In this document: positions 17,998 to 43,706 of the stretch, one piece after another
How positions within the stretch are numbered: the stretch's first letter is position 1
Layout: each line of letters opens with the position of its first letter
NCBI GenBank assembly: GCA_016196035.1
Contig: JACPYM010000026.1
Span: forward strand, 1 to 43,917
Reading direction: 5' to 3'
Length of the DNA stretch: 43,917 nt
DNA from: Acidobacteriota bacterium
GTDB taxonomy: Bacteria > Acidobacteriota > Blastocatellia > RBC074
The notes under the pieces: model-generated
Databases searched by the model: none
What the model was told of the DNA's origin: nothing
Seen by the model: only the letters and a program-made list of their open reading frames with translations
Position numbers and translations under genes: made by a program

Positions 17998-20900
17998 TCA
18001 TTGGCGCGGGGCCGGCAGTGGGGCCTCGCCCGGTTGCCCTTGCGCCTGCACGTGAATGCTTTGATCGGTTGAATAGCGGACGTACCAGCGGCTCTCGCGC
18101 AAACGCCAGACGGTGAGGTCGGCTTGCCCATCGCCGTCGTAATCGCCCGTGACCGGCACATCCCAATACGGCGCATAGCCCGCGCCCCAGGGCACGATTT
18201 GCGCCGCGCCATCCGCTGAGCGCCGGATGTACCAGTTGCCCTCCGACCCGCGCCAGACGGCGATGTCAGTCTTGCCATCGCCGTCGTAATCGGCGGCCAC
18301 CGGCGTGTCGCTGCCCAGGCCCCAGGCTTTCACCAGCGGCGTGCCCGTGCGGCTCAGCTTGACGAACCATTCCCCGCTGCCGCGCCGGAAGACAGCCAGG
18401 TCGGTGCGGCCATCACCGTCGTAATCGCCGGGCACGGGCACGTCCAGATAAGGCGCGGCAGCCGCGCCCCAGGCTTCGATCTCATACGCGCCGTCGGCGC
18501 TGCGCGCGATGTACCAGCGGCCTTCGCCGCCGCGCCAGACGGCCAGATCGGTTCGCCCGTCGCCGTCGTAATCGCCGGGCACGGGCACGTCGGAAGCCAT
18601 CCCCCAGGCCTTGACCAGAGACTGCCCGCTCGCGCTGAGCCGCGCGTACCACGTGCCGTTGGCGGGGCGAAAGACGGCCACATCGCATTGGCCGTCGCCG
18701 TCGTAATCGCCCGGCACGGGCACGTCGCCCGGCGCGCCGAAATCAATGGCTTGCGTCGCGCCGTCGCTGCTGCGCGCGATCAGCCAGCGTCCGTTCTTGT
18801 CGTTCCAGGTGAAGAGGTCGCTGCGGCCATCGCCGTCGAAGTCGTTGCGGGCGTCTTGCTCCATCTCGCAACTGTCGTCGTCGCCCTGGTGGATGACGAT
18901 GCTGCCGCCGCCCAACACAGTCGCGGGGGGGGCGTTGTCGGGCGCATTGAGTTGCGTGTCATAAACCAGCGCGCCACTCGGCTGATTCCAAACCTTGAGG
19001 CGGAGCTTGTCTTGCCCGCCGCCACCGGGCTGTTGCCCGTCAATGACAGTCAGCAGGAAACGATAGTCACCGGCGTTGTTGACCTTGCCTGTGCCGCGGT
19101 ATTGCGCCCGTGCGCCCGCGACCACCAGCCATGCGTAGCTTATGCTCTTGAATTTGAAATTGGCCGCGCCGAAGCTGAATTCGGTCGCCCCCTCTGGAAG
19201 GGCGCGCCTCTTTTTGTACTTGGCCGAGAAACTGAATTCGGCTTTGCCGATCAAAGCCGGGTTCGACGTATAAGCGCCCGCCGGTGAATTGATCCAGCCG
19301 CCGCCGGTGACAAAGCCGGCGCAGGGGTCGTAAATCACGACTTGCGCCATCAACCCGCCGATGGTAGTGGCCGTGCCTTGCTGGCCGCATTGGTTGCCCA
19401 CCGTCAGCAGCACCGGATAAACGCCCGGCTGGGTGAAGGTATAACTGGCGCTCACCGTGCCCGCGCCCTCATTCACCACGCCGGGCCGCGTCAGCGCGCC
19501 GAAGCTCCAGGTCGCGGTATGCGGCGCGCCGCCGCTATCCGTGAACGCGCCGCTGAAGCTGACCGCCGCGCCCACCGCATAGACCGCTTCGCTGGCGGGC
19601 GCGCTCAGGCTCACGACCGGCGCGGCGCACGCGCCGCCGCCGACGGTCAGCACGGCGACGCCGGACGTGACGCTGCCGCACGCGCCGCCGACCATCACGT
19701 CGTAATTGCCCGCGTCGCCGTTCGTGACCGCAGCGATGGTATAACTGCTGGCCGTGGCGCCGCTGATGTTGTTGCCGTTCTTGCGCCATTGGTAAGTCAG
19801 ACTTGCGCCCGTGGCCGTGACCGTGAAGCTCGCGCTCTGGCCCACAGTCCTGGTCAGACTGGCGGGTTGCGTGGTGATCGCCGTTGCCGGATTGACTGTC
19901 AACGCGGCAACCGTCGAGGTCGCGCTGCCGCACGCGCCGCTCACGACGACATCGTAATTGGCGGCATCGGCTGCGGTGGCCGCTGCAATCGAATAGCTGC
20001 TGCCCGTCGCGCCGCTGATGTTCACGCCGCCCTTGCGCCATTGATACGACAAGCCCGTGCCCGTCGCGGTTACGCTGAACGTCGCGGCGGAACCCGCGCA
20101 CGCCGTTTGATTGGTTGGCTGCGTCGTGATGGCCGTTACCGCATTGACCGTCAACGATGCCGCCGTTGAAGTCACACTGCCGCACGCGCCCGTGACTAGC
20201 ACATCGTAGCTCGCGGCTTCCGCCACCGTGATTGCGGCAATCGAGTAACTGCCGCCGTTTGCGCCGCTGATATTCACGCCGCCCTTGCGCCATTGATAGG
20301 TCAAGCTTGTGCCCGTGGCGGCGACGTTGAAGGTTGCTGACGCGCCGGTACACGCGGTTTGATTGACGGGCTGCGTCGTGATGGCCGTCGTCGTGTTGAC
20401 GGTCAATGTTGCGGCGCTCGAAGTCACGCTGCCGCAGGTGCTGTTCACGACCACCTCGTAATTGCCCGCGTCGGCTGCGCTGACAGGGTTGATGGTCAGG
20501 CTGGCGGCGTTTGCGCCGCCGATGCTGACGCCGCCTTTGCGCCATTGATAGCTGACCGCGCCCGCGCCGCTGGCCGCGACGCCGAAGGTCGCCGCACCGC
20601 CGGGGCAGGCCGTTTGATTGGCCGGTTGCGTGTTGATGGCCGTAGCCTCGCTAAGCGTCAGGCTGGCCGGAGAGGAAGTGACGCTGCCGCACGCGCCGCT
20701 GACAATGACGTCATAGCTCGCGGCATCGCCCGCCATCACGGCGGCAATTGTGTAACTGCTGCCGTTCGCACCGCCGATGCTCGCGCCGCCCTTGCGCCAC
20801 TGATAGCTCAGGTTCGTGCCGGTCGCGTTGACCGCGAACGTGACCGCACCGCCCGGACACGACGCCTGATTGGCGGGCTGTGTGTTGATGGCCGTCGTGG

Positions 20901-23900
20901 CGTTGATCGTCAATGTGGCCGGGGATGAAGTCAGCGCGCCGCACGCGCCGCTGACGACGACATCGTAGCTCGCCGCATCCGCCGCAGCGGCTGCGGCAAT
21001 GGTGAAGCTGTTGCCGTTTGCGCCGCCGATGCTTGCGCCGTCCCTGCGCCATTGATAGCTCAGGTTCGTGCCAATCGCCCCCACGCTGAACGTCGCGGAC
21101 GCGCCCGCGCAGACGGGTTGACTGGCGGGCTGTATGTTGATGGCCGTTGTTGCATTGACGGTCAGCGTGGCCGCGCTGGAAGTCGCTGTACCGCACGCGC
21201 CGCTCACCACGACATCGTAGTTGGCGGCATCGGTGGCGTTGTAACTGCTGCCATTCGCGCCGCCAATGTTCGCGCCGTCCTTGCGCCACTGATAGGTCAG
21301 GCTCGCGCCCGTTGCCGCAACGCTGAAGGTGGCGGACGTACCCGCACACACTGTTTGACTGGCGGGCTGTGTGTTGATGACTGTCAGCGCGTTGACGGTC
21401 AAGGCCGCCGCGCTCGAATTCACCGTGCCGCACGCGCCGCTCACGATGACATCGTAGCTGCCAGCATCCGTCGCCGTGTAGCTGTTGCCGTTTGCGCCGC
21501 CGATATTCACGCCATCTTTGCGCCACTGATACGTCAAGGCTGTGCCGCTGGCCGCTACGCTGAAGGTTGCGGCTGTGCCCGCGCAGACGGTTTGACTCGT
21601 TGGTTGCATGGCGATGGCGGTTGCCGCGTTGACTGTCAACGTGGCAACCGCCGAGGTCAGGCTGCCGCACGCGCCAGTCACGACGACATCGTAATTGGCG
21701 GCATCCGCCGCAGTGGCTGTGGCAATCGTGAAGCTGCTGCCCGTCGCGCCGCTGATGTCCACGCCGTCCTTGCGCCATTGATAGCTCAGGTTCGTGCCGG
21801 TCGCGCTCACGGCCAAGCTCGCCGCGGCGCCGTTGCAGACGGTTTGACCGGCGGGTTGCGCGGTGATGGCCGTCACGGCATTGACGCTGAGCGCCGCCGC
21901 GCCGGAAGCCGTTGTGCCGCAGCCGTTGCTGACATCCACCGTGTAAGCGCCCGCGTCAGCCGCCTGCGCATTGCTGATGGTCAGCGTCGCGGCGGTCGCG
22001 CCAGTAATGGAGCTGCCGTCTTTCTTCCACTGATAGCCGGTCGCGCCGAGGGCCGTGACGCTGAACGTGGCCGTGCCGCCCGCGCACAGCGTTTGGCTGG
22101 CGGGTTGCGCGCTGATGACCGGTGCAGTGTTGACGATCAAGGTTGCGGCGTTCGATGTGATCGTGCCACAGGCGTTGACGGCATCCACCGCGTAAGCGCC
22201 CGCGTCGCCCGGTTGCGCGTTGTTGATGATGAGCGTGGCGGCGTTTGCGCCGCTGAGGGGCGCGCCGTTCTTGCGCCATTGATAGCCGGTCGCGCCGGTC
22301 GCGCTGACGCTGAAGCTGGCCGTGTCGCCGGCGCAGACTGTGGCGGCAACGGGTTGCGCGGTGATCGTCGGCGGATTGTTGACCGTCAACGTGGCCGCTG
22401 TTGAAACGACGCTTGCGCCGCAGGCGTTGACCGCGACGAGATCAAAGAGCGCGCCGTTGTCGCCGAGAGTCACGGCCGATGTGGTGTAACTGCTGCTGGT
22501 CGCGCCCGCGATATTCGCGCCGTTCTTGCGCCATTGATAGCTGAGCGTGCCGTTGCCGCCGCTGACGGCGGCGGTGAATGTCGCGGGTTGGCCCGGACAG
22601 ACCGTTTGATTGGCCGGTGGCGTAGCGATGACCGCCGTGCCTTCGCTGTAGTGCGCAAAGAACTGCGCCTGTTGGCCGCCCGCCGTGGTGAAGTTGCCGC
22701 CGAGATAAAACTGCCCGCCCGCCGCCGCCAGCGCCGTGCCGAACGCGCTTGAATTGAAACCGCCGCCCAGTCCGCTGCCCACGGCTGACCAGGTATTGTT
22801 GACGGCATCCCAGCGCGCCAGTTCGTTGACGCCGGTCAAGCCGCCGGCATTGACGAAATCGCCGGTTGCGTAAATTGAATTCCCGCTCACGGCCAGCGCA
22901 TTGACATTGTGGCTGGGGATGCCGCTGCCCAAGGCCGACCATGTTGAAGTGCTCTCGTTCCATTTGGCGATGCTGTCGGCTGGCACGCCGCCCGCGCTGG
23001 TGAAGAGGCCACCCACGTAAAGCTCGTTGCCGCGCACGGCCAGCGCGCGCACAGTGTTGGACTGCAAACTGGGGCCGATGCCACTGCCCAGCGCCGACCA
23101 CGCGCTGCCATTCCATTTGGCGATGCCGTTGGCGGTGACGCCGCCCGCCGTGTCGTAACGCCCGCCCAGATAGAGGTTGTTCCCGCTCACCGCCAGCGCA
23201 AACACAAAGCTAATGCTGCCGCCGATGCCGCTGCCCAGCGCCGACCAGGCGCTGCCGTCCCATTTGGCAATGCCGCTGGCCGGAAAGAAGGTAGTGCAGG
23301 CGGCATTGCTGCAAGCCGTGGTGAAACTGCCGCCGGCATAAACGTCATTGCCGATGATGGCGATGGCATTCACGGTGCCGCCGCCGCTGCTGAGACCGCC
23401 CGACAGCGCCACCCAACTTGTCCCATTCCATTTCGCGATGCCTCTGGTCGCCACGCCGCCGACGGTGATGGTGAAATTCCCGCCCGCATAAACGTCGCCG
23501 TTGGCGCTCACTGCAATGGAGCGAACCTCAGAGCCAGCGCCGCCCGCGAGGCCGTTGCCGAGCGCCGACCATTGCGTGCCATCCCATTTGACGATGTTGT
23601 TGGCGGTCACGCCGCCCGCCACGGCGAATTGGCCGCCGACATAAACATTGTTGCCCTGCACTGTGACCGCCGTGATGTAGGGCGGAATATTGCTGCTGCC
23701 GTAGGAAGTGAAGATCGCCTTGCCGCCGCCGCCCAGCGCCGCCCACGCCGCGCCATTCCAACGCGCCAGGTTGCTCACATTCGGCCCGCCCACGCCGCGG
23801 AAATCGCCGCCCACATACACGTCGCCGCCCGTGGCCGCCAGCGCATAAACAGCCACGGTTAAGTTCGTCCCGCTGGCCGCCACACCGTTGCCCAGCGCCG

Positions 23901-25095
23901 CCCAGCTTGTGCCATTCCACTCCGCGATGTTGTTCACGGTGATGCCGCCCGCCGTCACAAACTTGCCGCCAGCCACGAGATTGCCGCCGCGCACCGTCAG
24001 CACTTTGACCGAACTGCTTGCGCCACTCGCGCCACTGCCAAGCGTGGCCCACGTGCTCCCGTTCCAGCGCGCCAGCAGATTGGCGCTGACGCCGCCCATC
24101 GTCGTGAAAGCGCCGCCCGCAACCAACTCGCCGCCATACCAGGCCAGTGCATTGACGGTGGTGTTCGCGCCCGTGCCCAGCGCTGTCCACGCGCTGCCGT
24201 CCCAACGCGCCACGCGATTCACCGTCACGCCGCCCGCCGCCGTGAAATCGCCGCCCGCATAAAGCTCCGTGCCGTTGAGCGCCAGCGCGAAGACCTGGCC
24301 CGCAAATGGCGGCGCGGTCAGGCCCGGGCCGAGCGCCGCCCACGTGCTGCCGTTCCAGACCGCGACGTTGTTCACGGTCACGCCGCCCGCCGTGCTGAAG
24401 ACGCCACCGACATAAACATTGGCGCCGCTGATGGCGATGGCGCCGACGTTCGGATTGAAAGCCGAACTCAGACCTGTGCCCAAAGCCGACCACGCGCTGC
24501 CGTTCCATTTCGCCACGCCTTTGATATTCGCGCCGCCCGCCGTCGTGAACGTGCCGCCCGCATAAACATCATTGCCGCTGACAGCCAATGCCAGTACGTC
24601 GCTGTTGAGGCCGCTGCCCAGCGCCGACCACACGCTGCCGTTCCATTTGGCGATGCGATTGGCGCTGACAGTGCCGACGAGTGTGAACGTCCCGCCGACA
24701 TAAACGTCGCCCGTCGCGCTGATGGCTACGGCATTGACCTGGCCGACGGGGCCGGGCGCGTAAAATTGCGTGTCCCAGTTTTCATCGCAAGTGACGGCCG
24801 GAGCCAGAAAGCGCGGCGCGCCATTGGCTGCCGTCGCCATACGCCAGCCGCGCGCGTCGAAGCTGCCGCGCAAGTCCGGCGCGCTTTTCAGCGTGCCATC
24901 CGCATTGAGCAGGCTCGGATTGAGCGCGCTTGGCGAGGGTGCGGGCGCGCCGGGCCACAGTGACGGCGCGTTCTGTGTCGCCACGGCCTGGCGCGGCGTG
25001 AAGCTGAAGAGCACGAAGACGGCGGCGAGCAGCAGCAGGCCGAGCAGCGCGGCGCGTGTGAATGGCGCGGGGGGCTGGCGAAATGCGGGTGTCAT
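17998..25095 (-). CDS. Giant exported multidomain protein (propeller, Ig-like, PKD, post-COAP-1, FG-GAP)
   Basis: This 2365-residue protein starts at the ATG at 25095 after AAGGAG-AAAACC. Residues 1-40 form a signal peptide. About 115-820 hold 14 repeats of roughly 50 residues (VYVGGTFTTAGG ... IAKWNGSAWSALGSG), a number that would fit two seven-bladed propellers. About 822-1818 hold 12 Ig-like domains of about 83 residues (QTVCAG ... YQWRKDG ... GACGSVTS ... TLTVN). About 1820-1915 is PKD-like. About 1920-2070 resembles the post-COAP-1 domain (FVTGGGWINSPAGAY). About 2078-2365 hold six FG-GAP-like repeats with the calcium-binding type motif DYDGDGRTD. It is probably secreted or surface-bound, for adhesion or polymer binding. 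No catalytic domain or sorting signal is seen. Confidence 0.9.
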   Translation of the reverse strand: MTPAFRQPPAPFTRAALLGLLLLAAVFVLFSFTPRQAVATQNAPSLWPGAPAPSPSALNPSLLNADGTLKSAPDLRGSFDARGWRMATAANGAPRFLAPAVTCDENWDTQFYAPGPVGQVNAVAISATGDVYVGGTFTLVGTVSANRIAKWNGSVWSALGSGLNSDVLALAVSGNDVYAGGTFTTAGGANIKGVAKWNGSAWSALGTGLSSAFNPNVGAIAISGANVYVGGVFSTAGGVTVNNVAVWNGSTWAALGPGLTAPPFAGQVFALALNGTELYAGGDFTAAGGVTVNRVARWDGSAWTALGTGANTTVNALAWYGGELVAGGAFTTMGGVSANLLARWNGSTWATLGSGASGASSSVKVLTVRGGNLVAGGKFVTAGGITVNNIAEWNGTSWAALGNGVAASGTNLTVAVYALAATGGDVYVGGDFRGVGGPNVSNLARWNGAAWAALGGGGKAIFTSYGSSNIPPYITAVTVQGNNVYVGGQFAVAGGVTANNIVKWDGTQWSALGNGLAGGAGSEVRSIAVSANGDVYAGGNFTITVGGVATRGIAKWNGTSWVALSGGLSSGGGTVNAIAIIGNDVYAGGSFTTACSNAACTTFFPASGIAKWDGSAWSALGSGIGGSISFVFALAVSGNNLYLGGRYDTAGGVTANGIAKWNGSAWSALGSGIGPSLQSNTVRALAVRGNELYVGGLFTSAGGVPADSIAKWNESTSTWSALGSGIPSHNVNALAVSGNSIYATGDFVNAGGLTGVNELARWDAVNNTWSAVGSGLGGGFNSSAFGTALAAAGGQFYLGGNFTTAGGQQAQFFAHYSEGTAVIATPPANQTVCPGQPATFTAAVSGGNGTLSYQWRKNGANIAGATSSSYTTSAVTLGDNGALFDLVAVNACGASVVSTAATLTVNNPPTITAQPVAATVCAGDTASFSVSATGATGYQWRKNGAPLSGANAATLIINNAQPGDAGAYAVDAVNACGTITSNAATLIVNTAPVISAQPASQTLCAGGTATFSVTALGATGYQWKKDGSSITGATAATLTISNAQAADAGAYTVDVSNGCGTTASGAAALSVNAVTAITAQPAGQTVCNGAAASLAVSATGTNLSYQWRKDGVDISGATGSSFTIATATAADAANYDVVVTGACGSLTSAVATLTVNAATAIAMQPTSQTVCAGTAATFSVAASGTALTYQWRKDGVNIGGANGNSYTATDAGSYDVIVSGACGTVNSSAAALTVNALTVINTQPASQTVCAGTSATFSVAATGASLTYQWRKDGANIGGANGSSYNATDAANYDVVVSGACGTATSSAATLTVNATTAINIQPASQPVCAGASATFSVGAIGTNLSYQWRRDGASIGGANGNSFTIAAAAAADAASYDVVVSGACGALTSSPATLTINATTAINTQPANQASCPGGAVTFAVNATGTNLSYQWRKGGASIGGANGSSYTIAAVMAGDAASYDVIVSGACGSVTSSPASLTLSEATAINTQPANQTACPGGAATFGVAASGAGAVSYQWRKGGVSIGGANAASLTINPVSAADAGNYEVVVNSTCGSVTSSAATLTVNTTTAITTQPVNQTACTGASATFNVAATGTSLTYQWRKGGVNISGANGGSYSIAAITVAEAASYDVLVTGACGSVTSTAASLTVNAVTAITTQPTNQTACAGSAATFSVTATGTGLSYQWRKGGVNISGATGSSYSIAAATAADAANYDVVVSGACGSATSTVAALTVNPATAITTQPASLTRTVGQSASFTVTATGASLTYQWRKNGNNISGATASSYTIAAVTNGDAGNYDVMVGGACGSVTSGVAVLTVGGGACAAPVVSLSAPASEAVYAVGAAVSFSGAFTDSGGAPHTATWSFGALTRPGVVNEGAGTVSASYTFTQPGVYPVLLTVGNQCGQQGTATTIGGLMAQVVIYDPCAGFVTGGGWINSPAGAYTSNPALIGKAEFSFSAKYKKRRALPEGATEFSFGAANFKFKSISYAWLVVAGARAQYRGTGKVNNAGDYRFLLTVIDGQQPGGGGQDKLRLKVWNQPSGALVYDTQLNAPDNAPPATVLGGGSIVIHQGDDDSCEMEQDARNDFDGDGRSDLFTWNDKNGRWLIARSSDGATQAIDFGAPGDVPVPGDYDGDGQCDVAVFRPANGTWYARLSASGQSLVKAWGMASDVPVPGDYDGDGRTDLAVWRGGEGRWYIARSADGAYEIEAWGAAAAPYLDVPVPGDYDGDGRTDLAVFRRGSGEWFVKLSRTGTPLVKAWGLGSDTPVAADYDGDGKTDIAVWRGSEGNWYIRRSADGAAQIVPWGAGYAPYWDVPVTGDYDGDGQADLTVWRLRESRWYVRYSTDQSIHVQAQGQPGEAPLPAPRQ

Positions 25096-25140
25096 GGTTT
25101 TCTCCTTGGTGGGGTTGTGATTGAAATTGAAAGTAGTGAA
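25096..25140 (-). promoter_or_regulatory. 5' leader of the giant gene, shared with paralog B
   Basis: On the minus strand the leader contains TTTCAATTTCAATCACAACC before AAGGAGAAAACC-ATG. Paralog B has the same block at 26240-26280 with only a few differences, and paralog A a shorter match. Conservation in a non-coding stretch beside otherwise unrelated proteins suggests a copied 5' module or shared mRNA-level control. Confidence 0.45.
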
Positions 25141-25185
25141 GGTGCGGCGACACGCGGTGAGCCGCCACGCAAATTGATCTTCCTC

Positions 25186-25335
25186 GCTCCGTAGGAGCGC
25201 AATGTTTATAGAATGCGGCGCAAACACAGCCGCTAGCTCGGTAGGAGCGGCATCTGAGACGCGCACATGCCGCTCCTACGAAGCTAACGGACTTTTGCTG
25301 TACGGCTTCTATAAACAGGCCGCTCCTACGGAGCT
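25186..25335. repeat. Nested palindrome of the GTAGGAGCGG family
   Basis: Outer arms 25186-25212 and 25307-25335 (core CTCCGTAGGAGCG, then TGTTTATAGAA) and inner arms 25234-25253 and 25267-25286 (core GGTAGGAGCGGCAT) are nested. It belongs to the same family as the elements at 14080-14242 and 14949-15111. It occupies most of the 301-nt gap between paralog B and the giant gene. Confidence 0.8.
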
Positions 25336-30101: not shown

Positions 30102-30470
30102 ATGACAACGTTGGAGCAAGTGATCGAAAGCGCGAAAACCCTGCCGCCCGCCGACCGCCAGCGCTTGCAGCTTTTCCTGCAAGAACAGGCCGCGTGCGAC
30201 GCCACTGCCGCACAAGCTGACAGCGCCGCGCAGGCCAAAGCCGAACGGTTGCGGCAGGAACTGGACGAGTACCGGCGCGCCAAAGCCTGGATCGCCGCGC
30301 ATCGCGCCGAATATCTGGGCCAATGGGTCGTGCTCGCGGGTGACCGGCTTATCAGCCACGGCTTTGATGGCCATCAGGTTTGCGATGAAGCCAGAACCGC
30401 TGGCATCAAAGTTCCTTTCCTGGTTTGGCTCCATGAAGAACCAGCGGCTTTTATGACGGGGCTTTTGTGA
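30102..30470 (+). CDS. DUF5678 domain protein (copy 1)
   Basis: The 122-residue protein has a helical N-terminal half (MTTLEQVIESAKTLPPADR, coiled-coil-like to about 60). It then carries the DUF5678 core: YLGQWVVLAGDRLISHG, EARTAGIKVPFL. Proteins of this family are small, of unknown biochemical role, and in several phyla are encoded directly before retropepsin-like proteases. Here the stop TGA overlaps the ATG of such a gene by one base, but the protease has been cut short. GGAGG lies 7 nt before the start. Confidence 0.85.
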   Translation: MTTLEQVIESAKTLPPADRQRLQLFLQEQAACDATAAQADSAAQAKAERLRQELDEYRRAKAWIAAHRAEYLGQWVVLAGDRLISHGFDGHQVCDEARTAGIKVPFLVWLHEEPAAFMTGLL

Positions 30471-30550
30471 TGGCCTATCAACTCAACTTCACCGCCAGAC
30501 ACGCTTACGACACACGGGCGGAGGGCATCACACTTTCGCGCTCCCGCTAA
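30470..30550 (+). pseudogene. Remnant of a retropepsin-like protease gene
   Basis: Directly after DUF5678 copy 1, an ATG opens a 26-codon frame (MAYQLNFTARHAYDTRAEGI) that stops at 30550. It lines up with the first residues of the retropepsin-like gene after DUF5678 copy 2 (SHTLTFATLYEYDSRREGI). The protease body, with its catalytic Asp, is missing, and the oxidase gene ends only 7 nt further on. I read this as a truncated gene, although a functional small peptide cannot be ruled out. Confidence 0.6.
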
Positions 30551-32033: not shown

Positions 32034-32855
32034 TCAATTCGCCGCCACCACGACCGGCTTGCCGTCAAAGATGCTGATGTCCGGGCGATAGCGCACCAAG
32101 CGCCGCTCCTGGCGCGCGACCGTACCTGCGGGCAGTTTGTCCATGGCGGCTTGCACTTGCGCGCCCTGCGGCGTGGTTTGATCTATCTCCGCTGGCGACG
32201 TGAGCAGGCGCAGTTCAAGGTAAGTGCGGGTGATGTCGCCGCCGAAGCGCACCTTGGTGAACCAACGCGCCAACGCACTGCCTTGGCGGTCTGCCGGGAT
32301 AAATTCGGTTTTGCGCCAGTCTTCATAGGCTTTCGTCTGCCCCGGCGCGATTTCGAGGAAATTCAAAATCGCCCAGTCCGGCTTGCCCTGAAACTTCGCG
32401 CTGGTGTGGCTGAGCGCGGGGTCGTAGCGGACGACGTAAGCCAGCCGCTCTTCATAGAAGCGTGCGGCCCTAGCAAACAAAGCGGCGGCGCCGTCACCCA
32501 ACGCTTTGTTAATTGCGGTAGGTTGTCCGATCTGGGCATACCCCTCCGGCATTGGGTTAATGGCAATGAGTTCGGTCGTATTGCCGTAGACCGTCGCCCA
32601 ATAGTCGAAGCGTTTCGTGCCGCCCTTAATGCGCGCGGGATTCAACTCATGTTTGAGGAAGCTGGTGAGCTCCGTCATGTTCGCCGGTTTCACGCGGTAA
32701 ATCTGGATTTGCCAAAGCTCTGTTTTGTCGGCGGGCGGCGCGAAGCTGTTGGGGCTTTGCGCGGCGGCTGGCGGGAACGCTTTGTGCATGAGCGCGGGCG
32801 TGGCGAGCGCGAGCAGCAGCGCGAGAATGATGAACAAGCTGCGATAGGGTTTCAT
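32034..32855 (-). CDS. Paralog F: exported protein with two ABM/NIPSNAP-like repeats
   Basis: The 273-residue product has a signal peptide (about residues 1-30). Half one begins LWQIQIYRVKPANMTEL; half two has ILNFLEIAPGQTKAYEDW and TKVRFGGDITRTYLEL. It ends LVRYRPDISIFDGKP. It is most like paralog C. AAGGAG stands 8 nt before the ATG. It is divergent to the second DUF5678 gene with 83 nt between starts, the same arrangement as paralog E and DUF5678 copy 1. Confidence 0.8.
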   Translation of the reverse strand: MKPYRSLFIILALLLALATPALMHKAFPPAAAQSPNSFAPPADKTELWQIQIYRVKPANMTELTSFLKHELNPARIKGGTKRFDYWATVYGNTTELIAINPMPEGYAQIGQPTAINKALGDGAAALFARAARFYEERLAYVVRYDPALSHTSAKFQGKPDWAILNFLEIAPGQTKAYEDWRKTEFIPADRQGSALARWFTKVRFGGDITRTYLELRLLTSPAEIDQTTPQGAQVQAAMDKLPAGTVARQERRLVRYRPDISIFDGKPVVVAAN

Positions 32856-32910: not shown

Positions 32911-32938
32911 GCAGACCATGCAACCGGAGGAAAATGTG

Positions 32939-33316
32939 ATGATGACGTATGAACAAGTGCTTGAAACCATTGGTACGTGGCCGCGCGCCGCGCGCCGCCA
33001 ATTGCGCGAACAGTTGCAGACGCTGGAACAACAGGACGCCGCGCCTGCACCGCCAGTCGAACAACCTGTCAATGGTGTGCACCAAAGCGAGACCGTCGAA
33101 GAACAAATCGCGCGCTTCAACAAAGCGCTGAACTGGATTCGTGAACACCGCGCCGAATACCTGGGCCAATGGGTCGTGCTGGTCGGCGACCAACTCATCA
33201 GCCACGGGCCTGATGCCGCGGCGGTCTTTGCGCAAGCGAAAGCTGCCGGCATTGAAACGCCGTTCCTCGAACAAATCCGCGCAGAAGAACCGGCTTACTG
33301 TGGAGGCTGGTTGTGA
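32939..33316 (+). CDS. DUF5678 domain protein (copy 2)
   Basis: The 125-residue protein has a helical first half (TYEQVLETIGTWPRAARRQ), a Pro/Gln linker, and the DUF5678 core EYLGQWVVLVGDQLISHG, AAGIETPFLEQI. The block EYLGQWVVL is identical in copy 1. Two adjacent ATGs (32939, 32942) follow GGAGG; the upstream in-frame extension is not supported. Its TGA overlaps the GTG of the next gene by 4 nt (GTGA), which suggests translational coupling with the retropepsin-like gene. Confidence 0.88.
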   Translation: MMTYEQVLETIGTWPRAARRQLREQLQTLEQQDAAPAPPVEQPVNGVHQSETVEEQIARFNKALNWIREHRAEYLGQWVVLVGDQLISHGPDAAAVFAQAKAAGIETPFLEQIRAEEPAYCGGWL

Positions 33317-33716
33317 GCCACACGCTGACGTTCGCCACGCTTTATGAATACGACTCCCGCCGCGAAGGCATTGAGTTGCCGGTTGTCCTGCGTTCCGGCG
33401 CGCGCTCGGTGGCGTTGCGGGCCCCGGTTCCACCTTTTGCATTTTCCGGCGCGACCTCGGCGAGCAACTCGGCTTCGACATCGAACGCGGCCTGCCGCAA
33501 TGGATCGGCACGGCAACGGGCCGCTTTCTCACCTATGGCCACGAAGCCCTGCTAACGGTGCTCGGCTTGGAAATCGTCGCCACGGTCTATTTCGCCGCCA
33601 GCGTAGACATTCCGGTCAACGTGCTGGGCCGCGTCGGCTGGCTCGACCGCGTGCGCCTGGGTTTGGTGGATTACAACTGCCACCTTTATCTGAGCGCGAG
33701 CGGCGACCCGGCCTAA
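33313..33716 (+). pseudogene. Retropepsin-like aspartic protease, frameshifted
   Basis: The gene begins GTG (SHTLTFATLYEYDSRREGIE) in one frame. From about 33426 its expected continuation is in another frame (GSTFCIFRRDLGEQLGFDIE, then LGRVGWLDRVRLGLVDY), ending at TAA 33714-33716. The joined product would be about 134 residues, the size of bacterial single-domain retropepsins. The shift falls where the catalytic D-[ST]-G should be; the second frame shows G-P-G-S there. Either the gene is inactive or there is a sequencing or assembly indel. It is coupled to DUF5678 copy 2. Confidence 0.7.
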
Positions 33717-34244: not shown

Positions 34245-34368
34245 CCTGGGTACGCAGCGCTTCCAGCGTGCGGGCTTCAAAGGGGACGCCTTGGTTCCGG
34301 CAGGGTTTCCCTCCGGCATGCATTCGTCCGATTGAAAGCCCGCCTGCTGGAAGCGCTGCGTACCCAGG
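34245..34368. repeat. Imperfect 35-bp inverted repeat
   Basis: Arms 34245-34279 and 34334-34368 share CCTGGGTACGCAGCGCTTCC and CGGGCTT with about four mismatches. The element lies between paralog G and the NTF2-like gene. Confidence 0.75.
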
Positions 34369-34374
34369 CTGCGC

Positions 34375-35211
34375 TTACTTCGCGGCCTTCTGCGCTTCGG
34401 GCCGGATGCTCAGTTCCGGCACGTAACGATAGACCGCCGATTCCTGCGACAGCACAACACCTGCCAGCTTTGGGGCTGCGCCGCCGCTGCCACCAGATGT
34501 ACCAGCCTTGACCAGCGATATTCCCCATTTGTCAATGCCCGCGAAGGAATCCAGGAAGAACATGCCGAAGTACTCATTGTTGTCGCCGCCAAGCCCAACC
34601 TTGCTCATCAAGAAGCCATTCGACTCGCCCTTGCGCAGCCACGACAGCGTGAAGTTTTTGAAAATGTCTTCGTACTCTTGCGTGCGGAAAGGCGCGATCT
34701 TCGTGCGGTAAACGACGGCCAGCTTGGGCTCCGCGTCGCGTTTCAGCGGGATGCACAACTCAGGCCGCAGTTGCACGCTGAAGCGGCGCGTGTCGGCGAC
34801 GAGTTGGCTCCACTTCGCATTCAAGGCGCGCGCGCCCTCCGCGCCCAGGGCCTTCGTCATCGGATTGGGTTCATCGAGATTCGCCAGCCCGCGTGACGGT
34901 TCAACCGAGATGTATTCATAGCCTTCGCCGAAAACGGCGGTGTTCCACACGTTGTGTTCTTTCACGCCGCCTTTCTTGAGCGCGGGCAAGGCTTCGTTGA
35001 TTTGTAAGTCTCTGAACGCGCCTTCCATGCCGGGTTTCACATGCGTGATGCGCACCCAATAAGACGGCGGCGTGGCGGTGGGTTGCGCGGTGGCGCCTTG
35101 CGTGGCGGCGACCGGCACGGGGGTGAATTGGAAGAGCGCGCATACGGCGACGGCCAACAACAGGCCGCCCAGCGTGGCGCGGGTGCATGACAAAGTGGCT
35201 TGGGGTTTCAT
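34375..35211 (-). CDS. Paralog G: exported protein with two ABM/NIPSNAP-like repeats
   Basis: The 278-residue product has a signal peptide (TRATLGGLLLAVAVCALF ... PVAATQ) strikingly like that of the giant protein (TRAALLGLLLLAAVFVLF ... AVATQ). Half one has THVKPGMEGAFRDLQ and LPALKKGGVKEH; half two has TKIAPFRTQEYEDIF and GLGGDNNEYFGMFFLDSF. The end is YRYVPELSIRPEAQKAAK, as in paralog A. The ATG overlaps the TetR stop as ATGA and AAGGAG lies just upstream, so the two are co-translated. Confidence 0.83.
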   Translation of the reverse strand: MKPQATLSCTRATLGGLLLAVAVCALFQFTPVPVAATQGATAQPTATPPSYWVRITHVKPGMEGAFRDLQINEALPALKKGGVKEHNVWNTAVFGEGYEYISVEPSRGLANLDEPNPMTKALGAEGARALNAKWSQLVADTRRFSVQLRPELCIPLKRDAEPKLAVVYRTKIAPFRTQEYEDIFKNFTLSWLRKGESNGFLMSKVGLGGDNNEYFGMFFLDSFAGIDKWGISLVKAGTSGGSGGAAPKLAGVVLSQESAVYRYVPELSIRPEAQKAAK

Positions 35212-35954
35212 TGTTGCGATCTCCTTGCGGGGGAAAGTTCGTTGAAGGGTTGGCGTCGCTGGCCGCCGCGTCCGTTGGCGCGTGGCACGGCGAGTTGGGT
35301 GGTTTCGTGTTGGGACGGGCATAGCAGCCCGCCCAGCACGAGGTTCAGAATCTCTTCGGTCAGCGCGGCGGCGCTCAGGCGGCCATTGGGGTCGTACCAG
35401 CGCGCGACCCAGAGCATGGTGCCGAGCAAGCTGAAGGCGGCGACGGTTTCATCCAGCGCGCGCAGCTTTCCTTCGTGTTTCAGTTGCCACAGCGTGTCGC
35501 GCAGCAGCTCAACATAGGCGCGTTTGCGTTCGTCAATCCGGCGGCGCTGCGTTTTGTTGAGACCGCCGGTTTCGTCCACGACGATGGTGACGGGGTTGCC
35601 GCGCCCAGCGCTTTTGCCAGGGCTGTTTGTGGAGGCCCCGGCGGTGATGAGGGCAACGTGGTTGCGGATGATGCTTTGCAACCGCGTTTCGGCATCGGCG
35701 CAGGCGCGCGCGGGCGTGCTGACGTGCTCTTCCAGCCGATCAAGCCCGAAGCTCATCACGGCATAGAGCAATTCCTGTTTGCCGCCGGGGAAGAAGTAAT
35801 ACAGCGCGGCTTTGGTGACGCCGACGGCGTCGGCGACGGCGCTCATGGTCGTGGCGTCGTAACCGCGCGCGCAAAACAGCGTGGCTGCCGCGCGGTAAAT
35901 TTGCGTATGGCGCGTGCCCTCAGCCGCTTTGATTTTTTTACGCAATGTTTTCAT
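35208..35954 (-). CDS. TetR family transcriptional regulator
   Basis: The 248-residue protein has a TetR N-terminal DNA-binding domain at about residues 10-65 (IYRAAATLFCARGYDATTMSAVADAVGVTKAALYYFF). The ligand-binding half is longer than usual and contains VDETGGLNKTQRRRIDERKR and a disordered C-terminal tail rich in Arg, Gln and Ser. Most TetR proteins repress their own operon until a small ligand binds. Its stop codon overlaps the start of paralog G. The ATG at 35954 is used; a TTG four codons upstream is possible. The TPR gene lies 23 nt upstream. Confidence 0.92.
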   Translation of the reverse strand: MKTLRKKIKAAEGTRHTQIYRAAATLFCARGYDATTMSAVADAVGVTKAALYYFFPGGKQELLYAVMSFGLDRLEEHVSTPARACADAETRLQSIIRNHVALITAGASTNSPGKSAGRGNPVTIVVDETGGLNKTQRRRIDERKRAYVELLRDTLWQLKHEGKLRALDETVAAFSLLGTMLWVARWYDPNGRLSAAALTEEILNLVLGGLLCPSQHETTQLAVPRANGRGGQRRQPFNELSPARRSQQ

Positions 35955-38442: not shown

Positions 38443-38745
38443 GTCATTGCTCCTGGAAATTTCAGCCGCCACCTTTTTGCCGTCCGGCAACCGGTGTGAC
38501 TGAGCTGTAAATTTATTTGATGCCGTATTGTCGCGGCTTCAACGCTTGGCATAGAATGCCGCCCCGTTGAGTTCAGCCGTGAGTCCTGCAATGACTCACG
38601 TCCTTGGTTTCGCCCTCCATACGGCATCGAGTACGGTTGTTTGTTGTTGCGCAACATAAACGAAGCCTGCTTTGACAGTCTTTAAGGTTTGGAAAAATTC
38701 CGGCTAAAGTTCGCTGAAATTTTTCCCGGCCAGGGGAGTGACTCG
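38443..38745. other. Divergent intergenic region with small inverted repeats
   Basis: No gene is seen. GATGCCGTAT (38519-38528) and ATACGGCATC (38619-38628) are perfect inverted repeats about 90 nt apart. Between them CGTGAGTC (38578-38585) and GACTCACG (38593-38600) form a tight hairpin. The region carries the promoters of the small protein gene (-) and the winged-helix ATPase (+). Confidence 0.55.
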
Positions 38746-40140
38746 ATGAACACACGCCCGCGCCGGATTTACGAATTCGGGCCTTACCGCCTGGAACTGG
38801 CTGAATGCCGGTTGTGGCGCGGCGGCCAGGAACTAAAGCTCAGACCGCGCCTGTTCGATCTGCTGGCCGTGCTGGCACAGCGCGGCGGGCAGATGATCGA
38901 AAAGGACGAACTGCTGCAAACCGTCTGGCCCGACAGCGCCGTCGAAGAGAACAATCTGACCGTCAGCATCAACGCGCTGCGCAAAATCCTCGGCGAACAC
39001 TACATCGAAACCGTCTCGAAACGCGGCTATCGGTTCACCGCGCCGGTCACCGTGCTGGCTGGCGAAACGCCGAACGCTGCGCCGCCGCTTGCTCAAACCG
39101 CCGCGCCCGGGCTGCCGACGGCTGAATTGCCGCCGCCGGGTGGGGCGCTGCCGCTGCATTCGCCGTTGTATCTCGCACGCCGCACCGATGCCGAATTCAA
39201 CACGGCCATCGCGCGGCGCGACAGCATCGTGCTGGTCAAAGGCGCGCGTCAGGTGGGCAAGACTTCGCTGCTTGCGCGCGGCTTGCAAGAGGCGCGGGCG
39301 GCAGGCGCGGCGGTGGTGCTGACCGATTTTCAGCACCTCAACGCCGAAGCCTTTGCCACTGTCGAAAAGCTGTTGCTGACGCTGGCCGAATTGATCGCCG
39401 ACCGGCTTGATCTCGACACGCCGCCGCACGAACACTGGAACAGCTTTCTCAGTCCGAGCAGCAACTTCGAGCGCTATTTGCGGCGGCAGGTGCTGGCGCG
39501 GCTCACCACGCCGCTGGTGTGGGCGCTAGACGAAGTGGACAGGCTTTTCAGCTTTGCTTATGCCAGCGAAATTTTCGGGTTGTTCCGTTCCTGGCATAAC
39601 CTGCGCGCGCTCGAACCTGACGGGCCGTGGCCGCGCTTGACGCTGGCGCTGGCTTACGCGACCGAGGCGCACCTGTTCATTAGCGACCTCAACCAATCCC
39701 CCTTCAACGTCGGCACGCGCCTCGTGCTCGAAGATTTCACGTGCGACCAAATCGCCGAACTGAATGAACGCTACGGCGCACCGCTCGGTGATGAGGCCGA
39801 AATCGCGCGCTTCTTCGCCTTGTTGGGCGGGCATCCGTATCTGGCGCAGCGCGGCCTGTATGAACTGGCGCAACATGGCCTGGCGTTGACGGCGCTCGAA
39901 GCGCAGGCCGACCACGATGAAGGGTTGTTCGGCGATCATTTGCGGCGGCTGCTGGTTTCGCTCGAACGCGACGCGGCCCTGTGCGCGGCCTTGCGCGCCT
40001 GGTGGCGGGAACAAACCCCGCTGGCGAACGCGGAGTTTTACCGGCTGCGCAGCGCGGGCGTGCTGGCGGGCGAAGCAGCGACGGAAGCGCGGCCTCGCTG
40101 TGAATTGTATGCGCGCTATTTGCAGCCGCGGTTGTTGTGA
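38746..40140 (+). CDS. OmpR-type winged helix fused to an AAA-like (STAND-type) ATPase
   Basis: The 464-residue protein has a Trans_reg_C winged helix at about residues 8-102 ([34 protein letters not shown]). A Pro/Ala-rich linker leads to an AAA-like NTPase domain: Walker [10 protein letters not shown] (166-174), Walker B LVWALDE (Asp262, Glu263), and [16 protein letters not shown], which is typical of the AAA_35-like group. It probably switches transcription in response to nucleotide state and an unknown partner. The ATG at 38746 has AGGGGAG before it; a TTG 19 codons upstream is less likely. The downstream gene carries a related ATPase domain. Confidence 0.88.
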
Positions 40141-40315: not shown

Positions 40316-40394
40316 GATTCAAACTTGATTGGCAGAAGAGACGCGCACCCGGTTGTAACGTTCGCTATCCAGCTTGCAGTATCGGCTTGCACCA

Positions 40395-43300
40395 ATGGAC
40401 ACATTGCAACCCCAATTCGCCCCCGGTTTTTACGTGGTCGGCGGCACGCTGCGCCACGATGCGCCGTCCTATGTCGAGCGGCGCGCCGATCATGAATTGT
40501 TCGAGGCGCTGGCGCGCGGCGAATTTTGTTATGTGTTGACGGCGCGCCAGATGGGCAAATCGTCGCTGATGATTCGCACGGCGCGGCGGTTGCGCGCGGC
40601 GGGTTGTGGCGTGGCGGTGCTCGATCTGACCGCCGTGGGCCAGAATCTGACGGCGGAGCAGTGGTACGGCGGGTTGCTCTTACAAGTCGGCCAGCGGCTC
40701 GAACTGGAAGACGAATTGATCGAGTTCTGGCAAACGCAAACGCTGCTCGGCCCGTTGCAACGCTGGCTGGCGGCGTTGCGCACGGTGGTGTTGCCGCGTT
40801 ATCCCAGCGCGCGGCTGGTGATTTTCATTGACGAGATTGACGCGGTGCGCAGCCTGCCGTTTTCGACCGATGAGTTTTTTGCCGGGTTGCGCGAATGTTA
40901 CAACCTGCGCAGCGCAGACGCGGAACTGGAGCGCCTGAGTTTTTGCCTGTTGGGTGTGGCGACGCCAGCCGATTTGATCCGCGACATGCGCATGACGCCT
41001 TTCAACATCGGTCGCCGCATCGAATTGCACGATTTCACTGCCGCCGAAGCCGCCCCACTGGCGCAAGGCTTGGATTGTCCTACGCACATTGCCGATGTCT
41101 TTCTAGCGCGCATTCATTACTGGACAAACGGCCATCCTTACCTGACGCAACGCCTCTGCCAGGCCGTCGCCGAAGCCAACCTGCAAGCCGCCAACCACAC
41201 ACCGCAATTCGTGGATGAATTGTGCGTCGAGTTGTTTTTCACGCGGCGCGCGCAGGAACGCGATGACAATCTGCTGTTTGTGCGCGAACGCCTGTTGTGC
41301 CACGAGGCCGATGTGGCGAGCCTGCTCGACCTCTATGCCAAAGTGCGCAAGGGCCGCCGCGTCGCCGCTGACGAAGCCGCTCCGCTGGTGAGCGCGTTGC
41401 GGCTGGCGGGCGTCACGCGCGGCGCGCCGGCGGGGTTGGCGCCAGCAGGATTGATGGAGGCTGGCTTGCAGGTGCGCAATCGCATTTACGCGCGCGTGTT
41501 CGATGCGGCCTGGATCGCGGCGAACATGCCGCAGGCCGAATTGCGGCGGCAACGCGCGGCCTATCGGCGCGGTATCGTGCGCACGGCGTTGCTGAGCGGT
41601 TTGTTGCTGGCGCTGGTGAGTTGGCTGGCCTTTACCGCCATCGGCCAACGCAACCGCGCCGAGCAGGAAGCCGAAGCGCGGCGGCAATTGCTTTACGATT
41701 CGCAACTGCGCTTTGCCTGGCAGGAGTGGGAGACCAACGCCAACACCGACCGCATCGAAGAGTTGTTGAACAGCACGCGCCCGCAACCGGGTGAGAGCGA
41801 TCTGCGCGGCTTTGAGTGGCAGCAACTCTGGGCGCTCACGCATGGCGAAGTGTGGCGCTGGCAGGAAGCGGATAAAGTCGTCGCCACGGCCTTTGCGCCC
41901 GACGGTCGGACGCTGGCCATCGGCACCGCCAGCCGGGCAGGCGCGCGCGGCGAGAATCAATATCTGGTGAAACGCTACGACCTCGACACGCGGCGCGAGT
42001 TGCATTCTTTCCGCGCGCCCGCCGGCAATGGTTTTGACTTGATCGTCTTTGCGCCGGGCGCACAGCACGTGGCGACGGACAGCCCTGATAACAACGTCGT
42101 TTTGTGGGATGTGCTGACAGGGCAGCCGCTGCAAGTCTTCAAAGGACACACCGACTTGCTGAAAGTCATCGCCTTTGCGCCGGACGGCCGCCAACTGGCG
42201 ACCGGCGATGCGACCGGCGTCGTGAAGCTGTGGGACACGGCGACGGGCCGCGAACGTTTGACGCCGGGGCAAAACAAAACAGGCCCGCCGCCGCCGCACG
42301 ACATCACCTGGCTCGCGTTTGCGCCGGATGGCCGTTGGCTGTTGGCCGCCGACGGCACAGCAACCGCGCGCTGGTGGGAAACCGCGACGGGCCGCGCGCT
42401 GCCGCCCTTCGTCTTGCCGGATGGCTTTATTCAAAACGCCGTCTTTCTGCCCGACGGCAAACAGTTGTTGACGGGCGATAAAGACAGCGCCTTTCACCTA
42501 TGGGATGTCACAACGCGGCGGCATTTGCTGCGTTGGAACGGCCACACCGGCTTTATCCAAGCCTTCGCTTTTGCGCCCGCTGGCCGCACGCTGGCGACAG
42601 GCAGCTATGACCGCACGGTCAAACTCTGGCCGTTGACCATGCCGCTGAAGCAAGTGCCGCAACCCGTCACGCTGCGCGGCCACGGTTCGGCGGTCTATTG
42701 CTTGGCTTGGTCGCCGGATGGCCGCTGGCTGGCGACGGGCAGTTTGGACAACACCGTCAAACTGTGGGACACACACGCGCCGCCCGCATTACGGTTGCCA
42801 GCGGAAACAATGGTTTCCTGGCAGGCGACGGCCTTTACCGCCGCGCACGAATTGCTGGCGCTAGGCGTCACCAAAGACAGCCAGGTGAAGCTCTGGAATC
42901 TTTCTAAGGAGCAGGCGCCGGGGCAGGCAACCGGACAGGGGGTGGCGCAATTCACCGGGCTGGAACCGGACAAGCAGTTGTTGTGCGCTGTTTTCTCGCC
43001 TGATCAAAAGCTGGTGGCGACCGGCGGGATGGACACGCTGGTCAGACTTTGGGACACGGCCAGTGGGAAGCTGCGGCAAACCTTGCGCGGGCACGTTTCG
43101 ATCGTGAAGGGCCTCGCCTTTTCACCCGATGGGAAATTGCTGGTGTCAGGCGGCGACGACCTGACCCTACGGCTCTGGGAGGTGGCGACAGGGCATGAAT
43201 TGGGGCAATTCAAAAGTGAAGTGGAGAATGCCTGGCGCGCGGCCTTTGCGCCGGATGGCCGCACCCTGGCCGGGGCCAGTCGCGACGGCAGCGTGAAGCT

Positions 43301-43706
43301 CTGGGAGGTGGCGACGCAACAACTCTTGCGCGGCTTCAACGGGCATACCGACAAAGTCAAAGCCCTGGCTTTCTCGCCCGACGGCCACTGGCTGGCGACG
43401 GGCGGCGATGACGGCGTCATCAAACTGTGGGAAGTCGCCACGGGCCACGCATTGAAAACATTGGGGCGCACCGACAAGCTGCAACGCCTTGCCTTTGCGC
43501 CCGACAACAAACGGCTGCTGACGGGCGGGGTGGACGGCACCGTCAAACTCTGGAATGTCACCACGGGACAGGAATTGCTGACGCTGCCCGGCCATCAGGA
43601 CGAAGTGACGTCGCTCACCTTTGCCAGCGACGGGCTGAGCCTGGCCACCAGCGGCGGCGACGGTACGGTGCGCTTGTGGCGCGCTCGCACGGCCAGCCCC
43701 GAATAA
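40395..43706 (+). CDS. Membrane AAA-like ATPase with 14 WD40 repeats
   Basis: The 1103-residue protein has an AAA-like (AAA_35/STAND-type) NTPase: Walker A ARQMGKSS (50-57), Walker B LVIFIDEID (Asp146, Glu147) and NGHPYLTQRLCQ (near 245). A helical region leads to one membrane helix at about 396-416, then a short helix and 14 WD40 repeats from about residue 486 to the end (FAPDGRQLATGDATGVVKLWDTATG and similar). Fourteen blades suggest two seven-bladed propellers. Such proteins are seen in cyanobacteria and Acidobacteria and are thought to be ligand-gated switches. The ATG at 40395 is preferred over a TTG 7 codons upstream. Confidence 0.92.
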   Translation: MDTLQPQFAPGFYVVGGTLRHDAPSYVERRADHELFEALARGEFCYVLTARQMGKSSLMIRTARRLRAAGCGVAVLDLTAVGQNLTAEQWYGGLLLQVGQRLELEDELIEFWQTQTLLGPLQRWLAALRTVVLPRYPSARLVIFIDEIDAVRSLPFSTDEFFAGLRECYNLRSADAELERLSFCLLGVATPADLIRDMRMTPFNIGRRIELHDFTAAEAAPLAQGLDCPTHIADVFLARIHYWTNGHPYLTQRLCQAVAEANLQAANHTPQFVDELCVELFFTRRAQERDDNLLFVRERLLCHEADVASLLDLYAKVRKGRRVAADEAAPLVSALRLAGVTRGAPAGLAPAGLMEAGLQVRNRIYARVFDAAWIAANMPQAELRRQRAAYRRGIVRTALLSGLLLALVSWLAFTAIGQRNRAEQEAEARRQLLYDSQLRFAWQEWETNANTDRIEELLNSTRPQPGESDLRGFEWQQLWALTHGEVWRWQEADKVVATAFAPDGRTLAIGTASRAGARGENQYLVKRYDLDTRRELHSFRAPAGNGFDLIVFAPGAQHVATDSPDNNVVLWDVLTGQPLQVFKGHTDLLKVIAFAPDGRQLATGDATGVVKLWDTATGRERLTPGQNKTGPPPPHDITWLAFAPDGRWLLAADGTATARWWETATGRALPPFVLPDGFIQNAVFLPDGKQLLTGDKDSAFHLWDVTTRRHLLRWNGHTGFIQAFAFAPAGRTLATGSYDRTVKLWPLTMPLKQVPQPVTLRGHGSAVYCLAWSPDGRWLATGSLDNTVKLWDTHAPPALRLPAETMVSWQATAFTAAHELLALGVTKDSQVKLWNLSKEQAPGQATGQGVAQFTGLEPDKQLLCAVFSPDQKLVATGGMDTLVRLWDTASGKLRQTLRGHVSIVKGLAFSPDGKLLVSGGDDLTLRLWEVATGHELGQFKSEVENAWRAAFAPDGRTLAGASRDGSVKLWEVATQQLLRGFNGHTDKVKALAFSPDGHWLATGGDDGVIKLWEVATGHALKTLGRTDKLQRLAFAPDNKRLLTGGVDGTVKLWNVTTGQELLTLPGHQDEVTSLTFASDGLSLATSGGDGTVRLWRARTASPE

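What the first reader, a model, noticed from the sequence alone, without database searches (positions are those of the whole stretch)
33313..33716. Retropepsin-like gene broken at its catalytic motif, next to DUF5678
The N-terminal part and the rest of the protease lie in different frames, and the switch falls at about 33395-33426, where D-[ST]-G is expected. The residues there in the second frame are G-P-G-S. The rest of the protein is well preserved and the gene is still coupled (GTGA) to DUF5678, so the break looks recent. If DUF5678 and the protease form a functional pair, loss of activity may have been selected.
Basis: partly seen in the sequence, partly recalled or inferred. Interest (0 to 1): 0.6.

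Follow-up and report, generated by a model that had tools for sequence, protein, structure and literature searches.

The report
Broken protease in an antitoxin-like pair
A small HIV-protease-like gene in an unnamed bacterium has lost its cutting residue through a 10-base deletion; related genomes show that this gene is almost always tied to a small partner gene, and that the partner usually survives when the protease breaks, as in poison-and-antidote gene pairs.

Summary
The gene at 33313-33716 is a retropepsin-like protease split over two frames. Aligned with four relatives, the window alone lacks 10 bases at the catalytic motif, so the aspartate codon is gone, not just out of frame: a pseudogene. 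The lost motif was probably D-P-G, as in the nearest relative, not D-[ST]-G.

The pair is more telling than the break. In my census all 105 full-length proteases of the main family have DUF5678 directly upstream (104 uninterrupted), and 27 of 32 broken proteases still have it intact. In this genome 10 DUF5678 genes have a protease or remnant behind them; 5 of the 10 proteases are broken, two of them in this window. A few DUF5678 proteins carry N-terminal antitoxin-type domains (RelB-like and AF2212-like over curated cut-offs; ParD-like and RHH below).

Best reading: a type-II toxin-antitoxin-like module whose effector is a retropepsin and whose neutralising or regulating partner is DUF5678; here the effector has decayed. 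Toxicity and binding are untested, and a predicted joint structure was inconclusive (pTM 0.71). Selection for the loss is not shown.

The parts
32936..33316 (+). DUF5678 protein (in-frame starts GTG 32936, ATG 32939, ATG 32942); variable helical N-terminus, DUF5678 core at about 33123-33302
   Evidence: PF18929 26.3 bits over cut-off 23.2; own profile 85 bits, positions 3-61 of 61 (L001 coordinates); protein
33313..33316 (+). GTGA: start of the protease overlaps stop of DUF5678
33313..33555 (+). Protease frame A; homologous to the family only up to about 33422
33422..33426 (+). Junction of the 10-base deletion that removes the catalytic Asp codon and shifts the frame
   Evidence: 10-column gap in the window only, among five sequences
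33420..33716 (+). Protease frame B: rest of the retropepsin domain (98 codons and stop)
   Evidence: 126 bits with the family profile; 8 places in own genome at E <= 1.5e-6, itself included
30102..30470 (+). Second DUF5678 gene in the window
   Evidence: PF18929 23.9 bits in the genome search; own profile 77 bits; protein
30470..30550 (+). Remnant of a second protease: about 20 family positions, then a stop; its ATG overlaps the DUF5678 stop
   Evidence: 12.8 bits over profile positions 1-20

Best explanation
The window holds two copies of a chromosomal two-gene module, DUF5678 followed and usually overlapped by a retropepsin-like aspartic protease, and in both copies the protease is dead. In the copy at 33.3 kb a 10-base deletion removed the catalytic aspartate and the frame (shown); no aspartic protease can be made from it (follows). 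The module most likely works like a type II toxin-antitoxin pair: DUF5678 is made first, binds and restrains the protease, and in versions with a DNA-binding N-terminus represses its own operon; the free protease would cut some host protein (all inferred). Losing the effector is then harmless or favourable, losing the partner is not, so broken proteases with intact DUF5678 accumulate.
For: Pairing: 105 of 105 full-length main-family proteases have DUF5678 upstream; 79 of 80 named loci from Acidobacteriota, Chloroflexi, Patescibacteria and one Woesearchaeote have it, the exception starting at its contig edge. Coupling: start within 6 nt of the DUF5678 stop or overlapping it by up to 10 nt in 99 of the 111 open proteases then classed full. 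Asymmetry: 27 of 32 broken proteases keep a complete DUF5678 core, against 1 interrupted DUF5678 beside 105 full proteases; one-sided binomial 3e-4 after allowing for target length 61 against 131. DUF5678 profile scores are the same beside broken and full proteases, median 80 and 80. N-terminal domains: RelB-like 38-43 bits over cut-off 27 in 3 proteins (3 of 87 scanned), AF2212-like over cut-off in L171 and L173, ParD TIGR02606 E 5e-7 and 5e-8 in L167 and L169, below cut-off, FitA-like RHH E 1.6e-4 in L006, below cut-off. Copy number: up to 16 matches per genome. Fold: confident AlphaFold2 model (pLDDT 95.4) matches HIV-type and Rickettsia retropepsins.
Against: No toxicity, binding or proteolysis is shown. 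The linked-pair model reached pTM 0.71, not a confident interface. Most DUF5678 proteins, the window's included, have no recognised DNA-binding domain. Retropepsins with no DUF5678 hit upstream occur in the divergent group: L119, L275, L276, 3 of 51. No match on plasmids, phages or viral contigs, where many toxin-antitoxin pairs are found. One intact-looking protease, L036, sits behind a DUF5678 with a nonsense codon, though it lacks two near-invariant glycines. The census was seeded with the protease, loci are related by descent, and many genomes are drafts.
Confidence: 0.5

Rival explanations
1. DUF5678 is a dedicated chaperone, substrate adaptor or activator of the protease, in an ordinary regulatory proteolysis pathway; there is no toxin. 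The protease is lost when its pathway is not needed.
For: Strict pairing and coupling fit an obligate partner. In Patescibacteria and other divergent hits the partner is a bare domain of about 60-75 residues without a DNA-binding part. Known bacterial retropepsins such as RimB act in regulation (passages of PMC11957791).
Against: An adaptor or activator should decay with its enzyme, yet DUF5678 is intact in 27 of 32 broken pairs and scores no worse there. Antitoxin-type N-termini in several members are not expected.
Confidence: 0.25
2. Plain pseudogene decay in a multicopy family with no special logic; DUF5678 survives because it has a separate function such as transcription control, and the protease is merely dispensable.
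For: Many copies per genome. Breaks of many kinds: 10-base deletion, 14-base insert in L023, tandem duplication in L007, about 0.8 kb insert in L092. Own genome has three DUF5678 matches with no protease hit beside them.
Against: Does not explain why no full-length main-family protease was found without DUF5678 in 105.
Confidence: 0.2
3. Assembly or sequencing error in the window.
For: No reads were available; the junction lies in a run of C.
Against: Ten bases including a whole codon for Asp are missing, not one homopolymer base; DUF5678 next door and long ORFs elsewhere in the contig (1052, 1110 and 2422 codons) are open; a second pair in the same contig is also broken.
Confidence: 0.05

Closest known systems
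Bacterial retropepsin-like proteases: Rickettsia APRc (PDB 5c9b/5c9f), RimB of Pseudomonas fluorescens, the P. aeruginosa enzymes of PMC12239564
   Same: Single-domain clan AA fold; model matches 5c9f at TM 0.66 (query) and 0.70 (target), E 3.7e-5; D-x-G and hydrophobic-hydrophobic-G motifs
   Different: None of these is described, in the passages (PMC11957791) or abstracts in the listings (PMC4140852, PMC12239564) that I saw, with a DUF5678 partner; position 2 of the motif is often not Thr/Ser here; near-invariant Cys and His after the motif
Prokaryotic single-domain clan AA peptidases COG3577/COG5550 and NCBIfam TIGR02281, TIGR03698
   Same: Weak similarity: L025 to TIGR02281 E 4.1e-5 and TIGR03698 E 6.2e-4; PF13650 over cut-off in 4 of 8 intact or nearly intact members plus 1 divergent one tested
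   Different: Far below NCBIfam cut-offs of about 57 bits
Type II toxin-antitoxin modules (RelBE, ParDE, VapBC, Phd-Doc types)
   Same: Small overlapping gene pair, partner first, many copies, swappable N-terminal antitoxin-type domains, effector decays first
   Different: Effector is a retropepsin; neutralisation and toxicity untested; no plasmid or phage copies found
PF18929 DUF5678
   Same: Member over cut-off
   Different: The family has no described function; one paper in the library holds the name and from its title and abstract is unrelated

Membership tests
Retropepsin-like aspartic peptidase (window gene) | Catalytic Asp in D-[ST]-G | tested here: not met
   Asp codon lies in the 10-base gap
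Retropepsin-like aspartic peptidase (window gene) | Profile match of the predicted product | tested here: not met
   No Pfam hit for either fragment at E <= 10; relation is by family alignment
Retropepsin-like aspartic peptidase (intact relatives) | Asp and D-[ST]-G | tested here: met
   Of 111 open proteases, first residue D in 109; DTG 81, DSG 8, DPG 9, DCG 5, ETG 2, DRG, DYG, DMG, DTV, DTS, DTA 1 each, three of these counted by eye
Retropepsin-like aspartic peptidase (intact relatives) | Retropepsin fold and hydrophobic-hydrophobic-G motif | tested here: met
   Gly invariant in 72 of 72
Retropepsin-like aspartic peptidase (intact relatives) | Homodimer and proteolysis | not testable with these tools
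   Bench work
DUF5678 (PF18929) | Score over curated cut-off | tested here: met
   26.3 against 23.2 bits
Type II toxin-antitoxin module | Tightly coupled two-gene operon, partner usually upstream | tested here: met
Type II toxin-antitoxin module | Antitoxin-type DNA-binding N-terminus on the partner | tested here: inconclusive
   Over curated cut-offs in 5 named proteins, not in the window's
Type II toxin-antitoxin module | Effector not found without its antitoxin | tested here: inconclusive
   0 of 105 in the main family (L036's DUF5678 interrupted); 3 of 51 in the divergent group
Type II toxin-antitoxin module | Direct binding and neutralisation | tested here: inconclusive
   pTM 0.71 for the pair read as one chain
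Type II toxin-antitoxin module | Effector arrests growth | not testable with these tools
   Bench work

The most novel reading that the evidence does not exclude
DUF5678-retropepsin is a widespread, undescribed kind of toxin-antitoxin module in which an HIV-protease-like enzyme is the toxin and DUF5678 its dedicated inhibitor, with DNA-binding parts borrowed from RelB, AF2212, ParD and RHH antitoxins; and some copies, through D-P-G motifs or outright breaks like this one, have become stand-alone antidotes.
Probability: 0.35. Interest if true: 0.8.

Novelty: new variant of a known kind. Interest (0 to 1): 0.5.

Why it matters
If the pair is a toxin-antitoxin module, a retropepsin as the toxin would be an unusual effector, and DUF5678, a family without a described function, would get one that can be tested in a simple growth assay. 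It would also explain why these genomes carry many copies with frequent breaks. My searches for print: 'DUF5678' gave one unrelated paper, 'toxin-antitoxin' with 'retropepsin' none, two wider searches nothing on this; the library lacks most subscription papers. The broken gene alone is an ordinary pseudogene.

Tried and rejected
Natural single-chain fusion of DUF5678 and protease: no frame held both among the loci checked (loci L109-L218). Mobile origin: no tblastn match on plasmids or phages at 1e-3, none confirmed in viral contigs. Defence system: PADLOC gave only hits at E 0.014 or worse. Non-canonical motif linked with breakage: 8 of 21 broken against 20 of 108 full, p 0.078, not significant; D-P-G alone 6 of 21 against 9 of 108, p 0.017, picked after seeing the data. 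Co-variation of the two proteins: distance correlation 0.48, 0 of 999 permutations as high, but linkage and descent alone predict this. DUF5678 in solved structures: best match an amidophosphoribosyltransferase at E 0.01, not pursued.

Census limits: 195 distinct places. Dropped before the 105/32 count: 5 at contig edges, L165 (edge), L172 (Ns at the junction), and 51 divergent places below 95 bits or only partly matched by the profile. Breaks L023, L080, L095, L098 (lost C-terminal end) and L007, L166 first copy, L169, L173 (N-terminal frame change) were moved to 'broken' by hand. L080, L095 and L098 rest on profile ends alone. The remnants L011 and L017 were found through DUF5678 and are not in the 32. 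In one search the L011 piece was cut in a wrong frame; its score (12.6 bits) is.

Full report
What is there. DUF5678 (32936-33316) overlaps by GTGA a second gene starting at GTG 33313. That gene's first about 36 codons match the N-terminus of a retropepsin family, and from 33420 the rest matches in another frame. Aligned with four relatives the window alone lacks 10 bases at about 33422. The loss covers three codons and one base, including the catalytic Asp. The nearest relative, L023 from the same genus (68% identity over the C-terminal part), has D-P-G-S at the motif; the window keeps P-G-S, so its ancestor probably had D-P-G. L023 itself is broken elsewhere by a 14-base insert. Eleven of 12 near-invariant positions after the gap are kept and the frame is open for 98 codons, so the break is young compared with the divergence of the family. 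Assembly error is unlikely but reads were not available.

What family. Intact relatives match PF13650 over its cut-off in L003, L025 and L027, with the divergent L044 and with L096, that is 5 of the 8 proteins tested; L002, L023 and L053 fall below. AlphaFold2 on one member with 72 relatives gave pLDDT 95.4 and pTM 0.87, and Foldseek found HIV-1 protease and the Rickettsia retropepsin first. By sequence alone the best solved structures are weak, E 0.14 or worse. In 72 full members the catalytic D is kept in 71, its G in 71, a Cys six residues on in 70, a His in 71 and the LG-R glycine in 72. Position 2 of the motif is not Thr/Ser in 17 of 111 (nine P, five C, one each R, Y, M); what this does to activity is unknown.

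The organism. A genome called 'same class' (G017) carries a protein 100% identical to one of Blastocatellia bacterium SSF51 (L139), so the class is probably Blastocatellia, Acidobacteriota.

The pair. In the first census every one of 72 proteases then classed full had DUF5678 upstream. Among 80 named loci found through the protease, 79 have it; L165 begins at the contig edge. They come from Acidobacteriota, Chloroflexi, many Patescibacteria and one Woesearchaeote. In the final census of the main family, 105 of 105 full-length proteases have DUF5678 directly upstream, one of these (L036) with a nonsense codon at the edge of the DUF5678 core; that protease lacks the near-invariant Gly at positions 73 (W) and 112 (E). 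Of 32 broken proteases 27 keep a complete DUF5678 core and 5 have none (L026, L087, L102, L108, L115). Taking one DUF5678 break against 27 protease breaks and target lengths 61 and 131, the one-sided binomial is 3e-4. Loci related by descent make this too sharp; the search through the protease works against the result, since badly decayed proteases are missed, while breaks in the variable N-terminus of DUF5678 were not counted. Beside broken proteases DUF5678 scores as well as beside full ones, median 80 bits in both (23 and 109 places as classed then). Among 51 divergent places 3 have no DUF5678 hit (L119, L275, L276), so the rule is not absolute.

This genome. One search found 14 DUF5678 matches. 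Ten genes have a protease or remnant behind them: open in five (C81, C10, C107, C7, C100), broken in five: this gene; a second gene in this window, where about 20 family positions follow DUF5678 before a stop (30470-30550); C130 (frame change); C6 (remnant, 12.6 bits); and C33, with an exact tandem duplication of 32 bases that shifts the frame (counted by eye; frames). The two remnants score weakly and are accepted because of their place right behind DUF5678. Three DUF5678 matches (C85, C30, C33 at 1.7 kb) have no protease hit beside them, and C53 has a protease remnant without DUF5678.

Antitoxin-type N-termini. Of 87 DUF5678 proteins scanned, 3 match RelB-like PF18506 (38-43 bits against 27). 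L171 and L173 match AF2212-like PF01954 at 35.9 and 28.7 bits against 21.6. L167 and L169 match the ParD model TIGR02606 at E 5e-7 and 5e-8, below its cut-off; L006 matches FitA-like RHH at E 1.6e-4, below cut-off. L004 looks AbrB-like to me, from memory; no model matched. Most members, the window's too, have a short helical N-terminus that no Pfam model names.

Mechanism. Shown: the pairing, the coupling, the asymmetric decay, the fold, the break. Inferred: that DUF5678 binds and restrains the protease, that the free protease harms the cell, that the DNA-binding versions autoregulate. A joint AlphaFold2 run on 22 pairs read through their stop plus single proteins gave a well-folded DUF5678 domain (helix-strand-strand-helix-strand, pLDDT mostly above 92) but pTM 0.71 with a weak linker; this neither shows nor excludes an interface. 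The protease would probably act as a dimer, which was not modelled.

Verdict. The finding as given is a genuine, recent pseudogene. Its wider meaning is a strictly paired, often broken two-gene module that behaves in its evolution like a toxin-antitoxin pair. I give that reading 0.5. Literature: 'DUF5678' one paper, unrelated by title and abstract; 'toxin-antitoxin' with 'retropepsin' none. I read passages of PMC11957791 and PMC2642776 and only listings of the others. In those passages PMC2642776 names COG3577 and COG5550 as the prokaryotic single-domain families and has no occurrence of operon or antitoxin.

Noticed in passing
window 30102-30550: A second DUF5678 gene with only a short protease remnant behind it, 2.8 kb from the first, so both pairs of this contig have lost the protease.
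   Followed up: yes
window 34245-34368: Inverted repeat, two 44-nt arms 86% complementary with 36 nt between them, between two genes downstream of the pair; could be a small repeat element.
   Followed up: no
window 32034-32855 and 34375-35322 (and L023 flank): Two minus-strand genes on either side of the pair encode related-looking secreted proteins without a Pfam match; L023 has a similar protein nearby, suggesting a shared neighbourhood.
   Followed up: partly
window 38689-40140 and 40374-43706: AAA_35 with a transcription-regulator C-terminal domain, followed by AAA_35 with a long WD40 array.
   Followed up: no
window 17998-25266: 2422-codon protein with many Ig-like, FG-GAP and PKD-like repeats.
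   Followed up: no
L025 and family (protein positions 46 and 80): A Cys six residues after the catalytic Asp and a His in the following hairpin are kept in 70 and 71 of 72 full members, nearly as well as the Asp itself; not explained.
   Followed up: no
L026 (minus strand, about 635-1051 of the reverse complement): A deletion seems to have joined the N-terminal part of a DUF5678 protein to the middle of the protease, removing the DUF5678 core and the protease start (by eye).
   Followed up: partly
L002, L052, L068: Two DUF5678 domains upstream of one protease.
   Followed up: no
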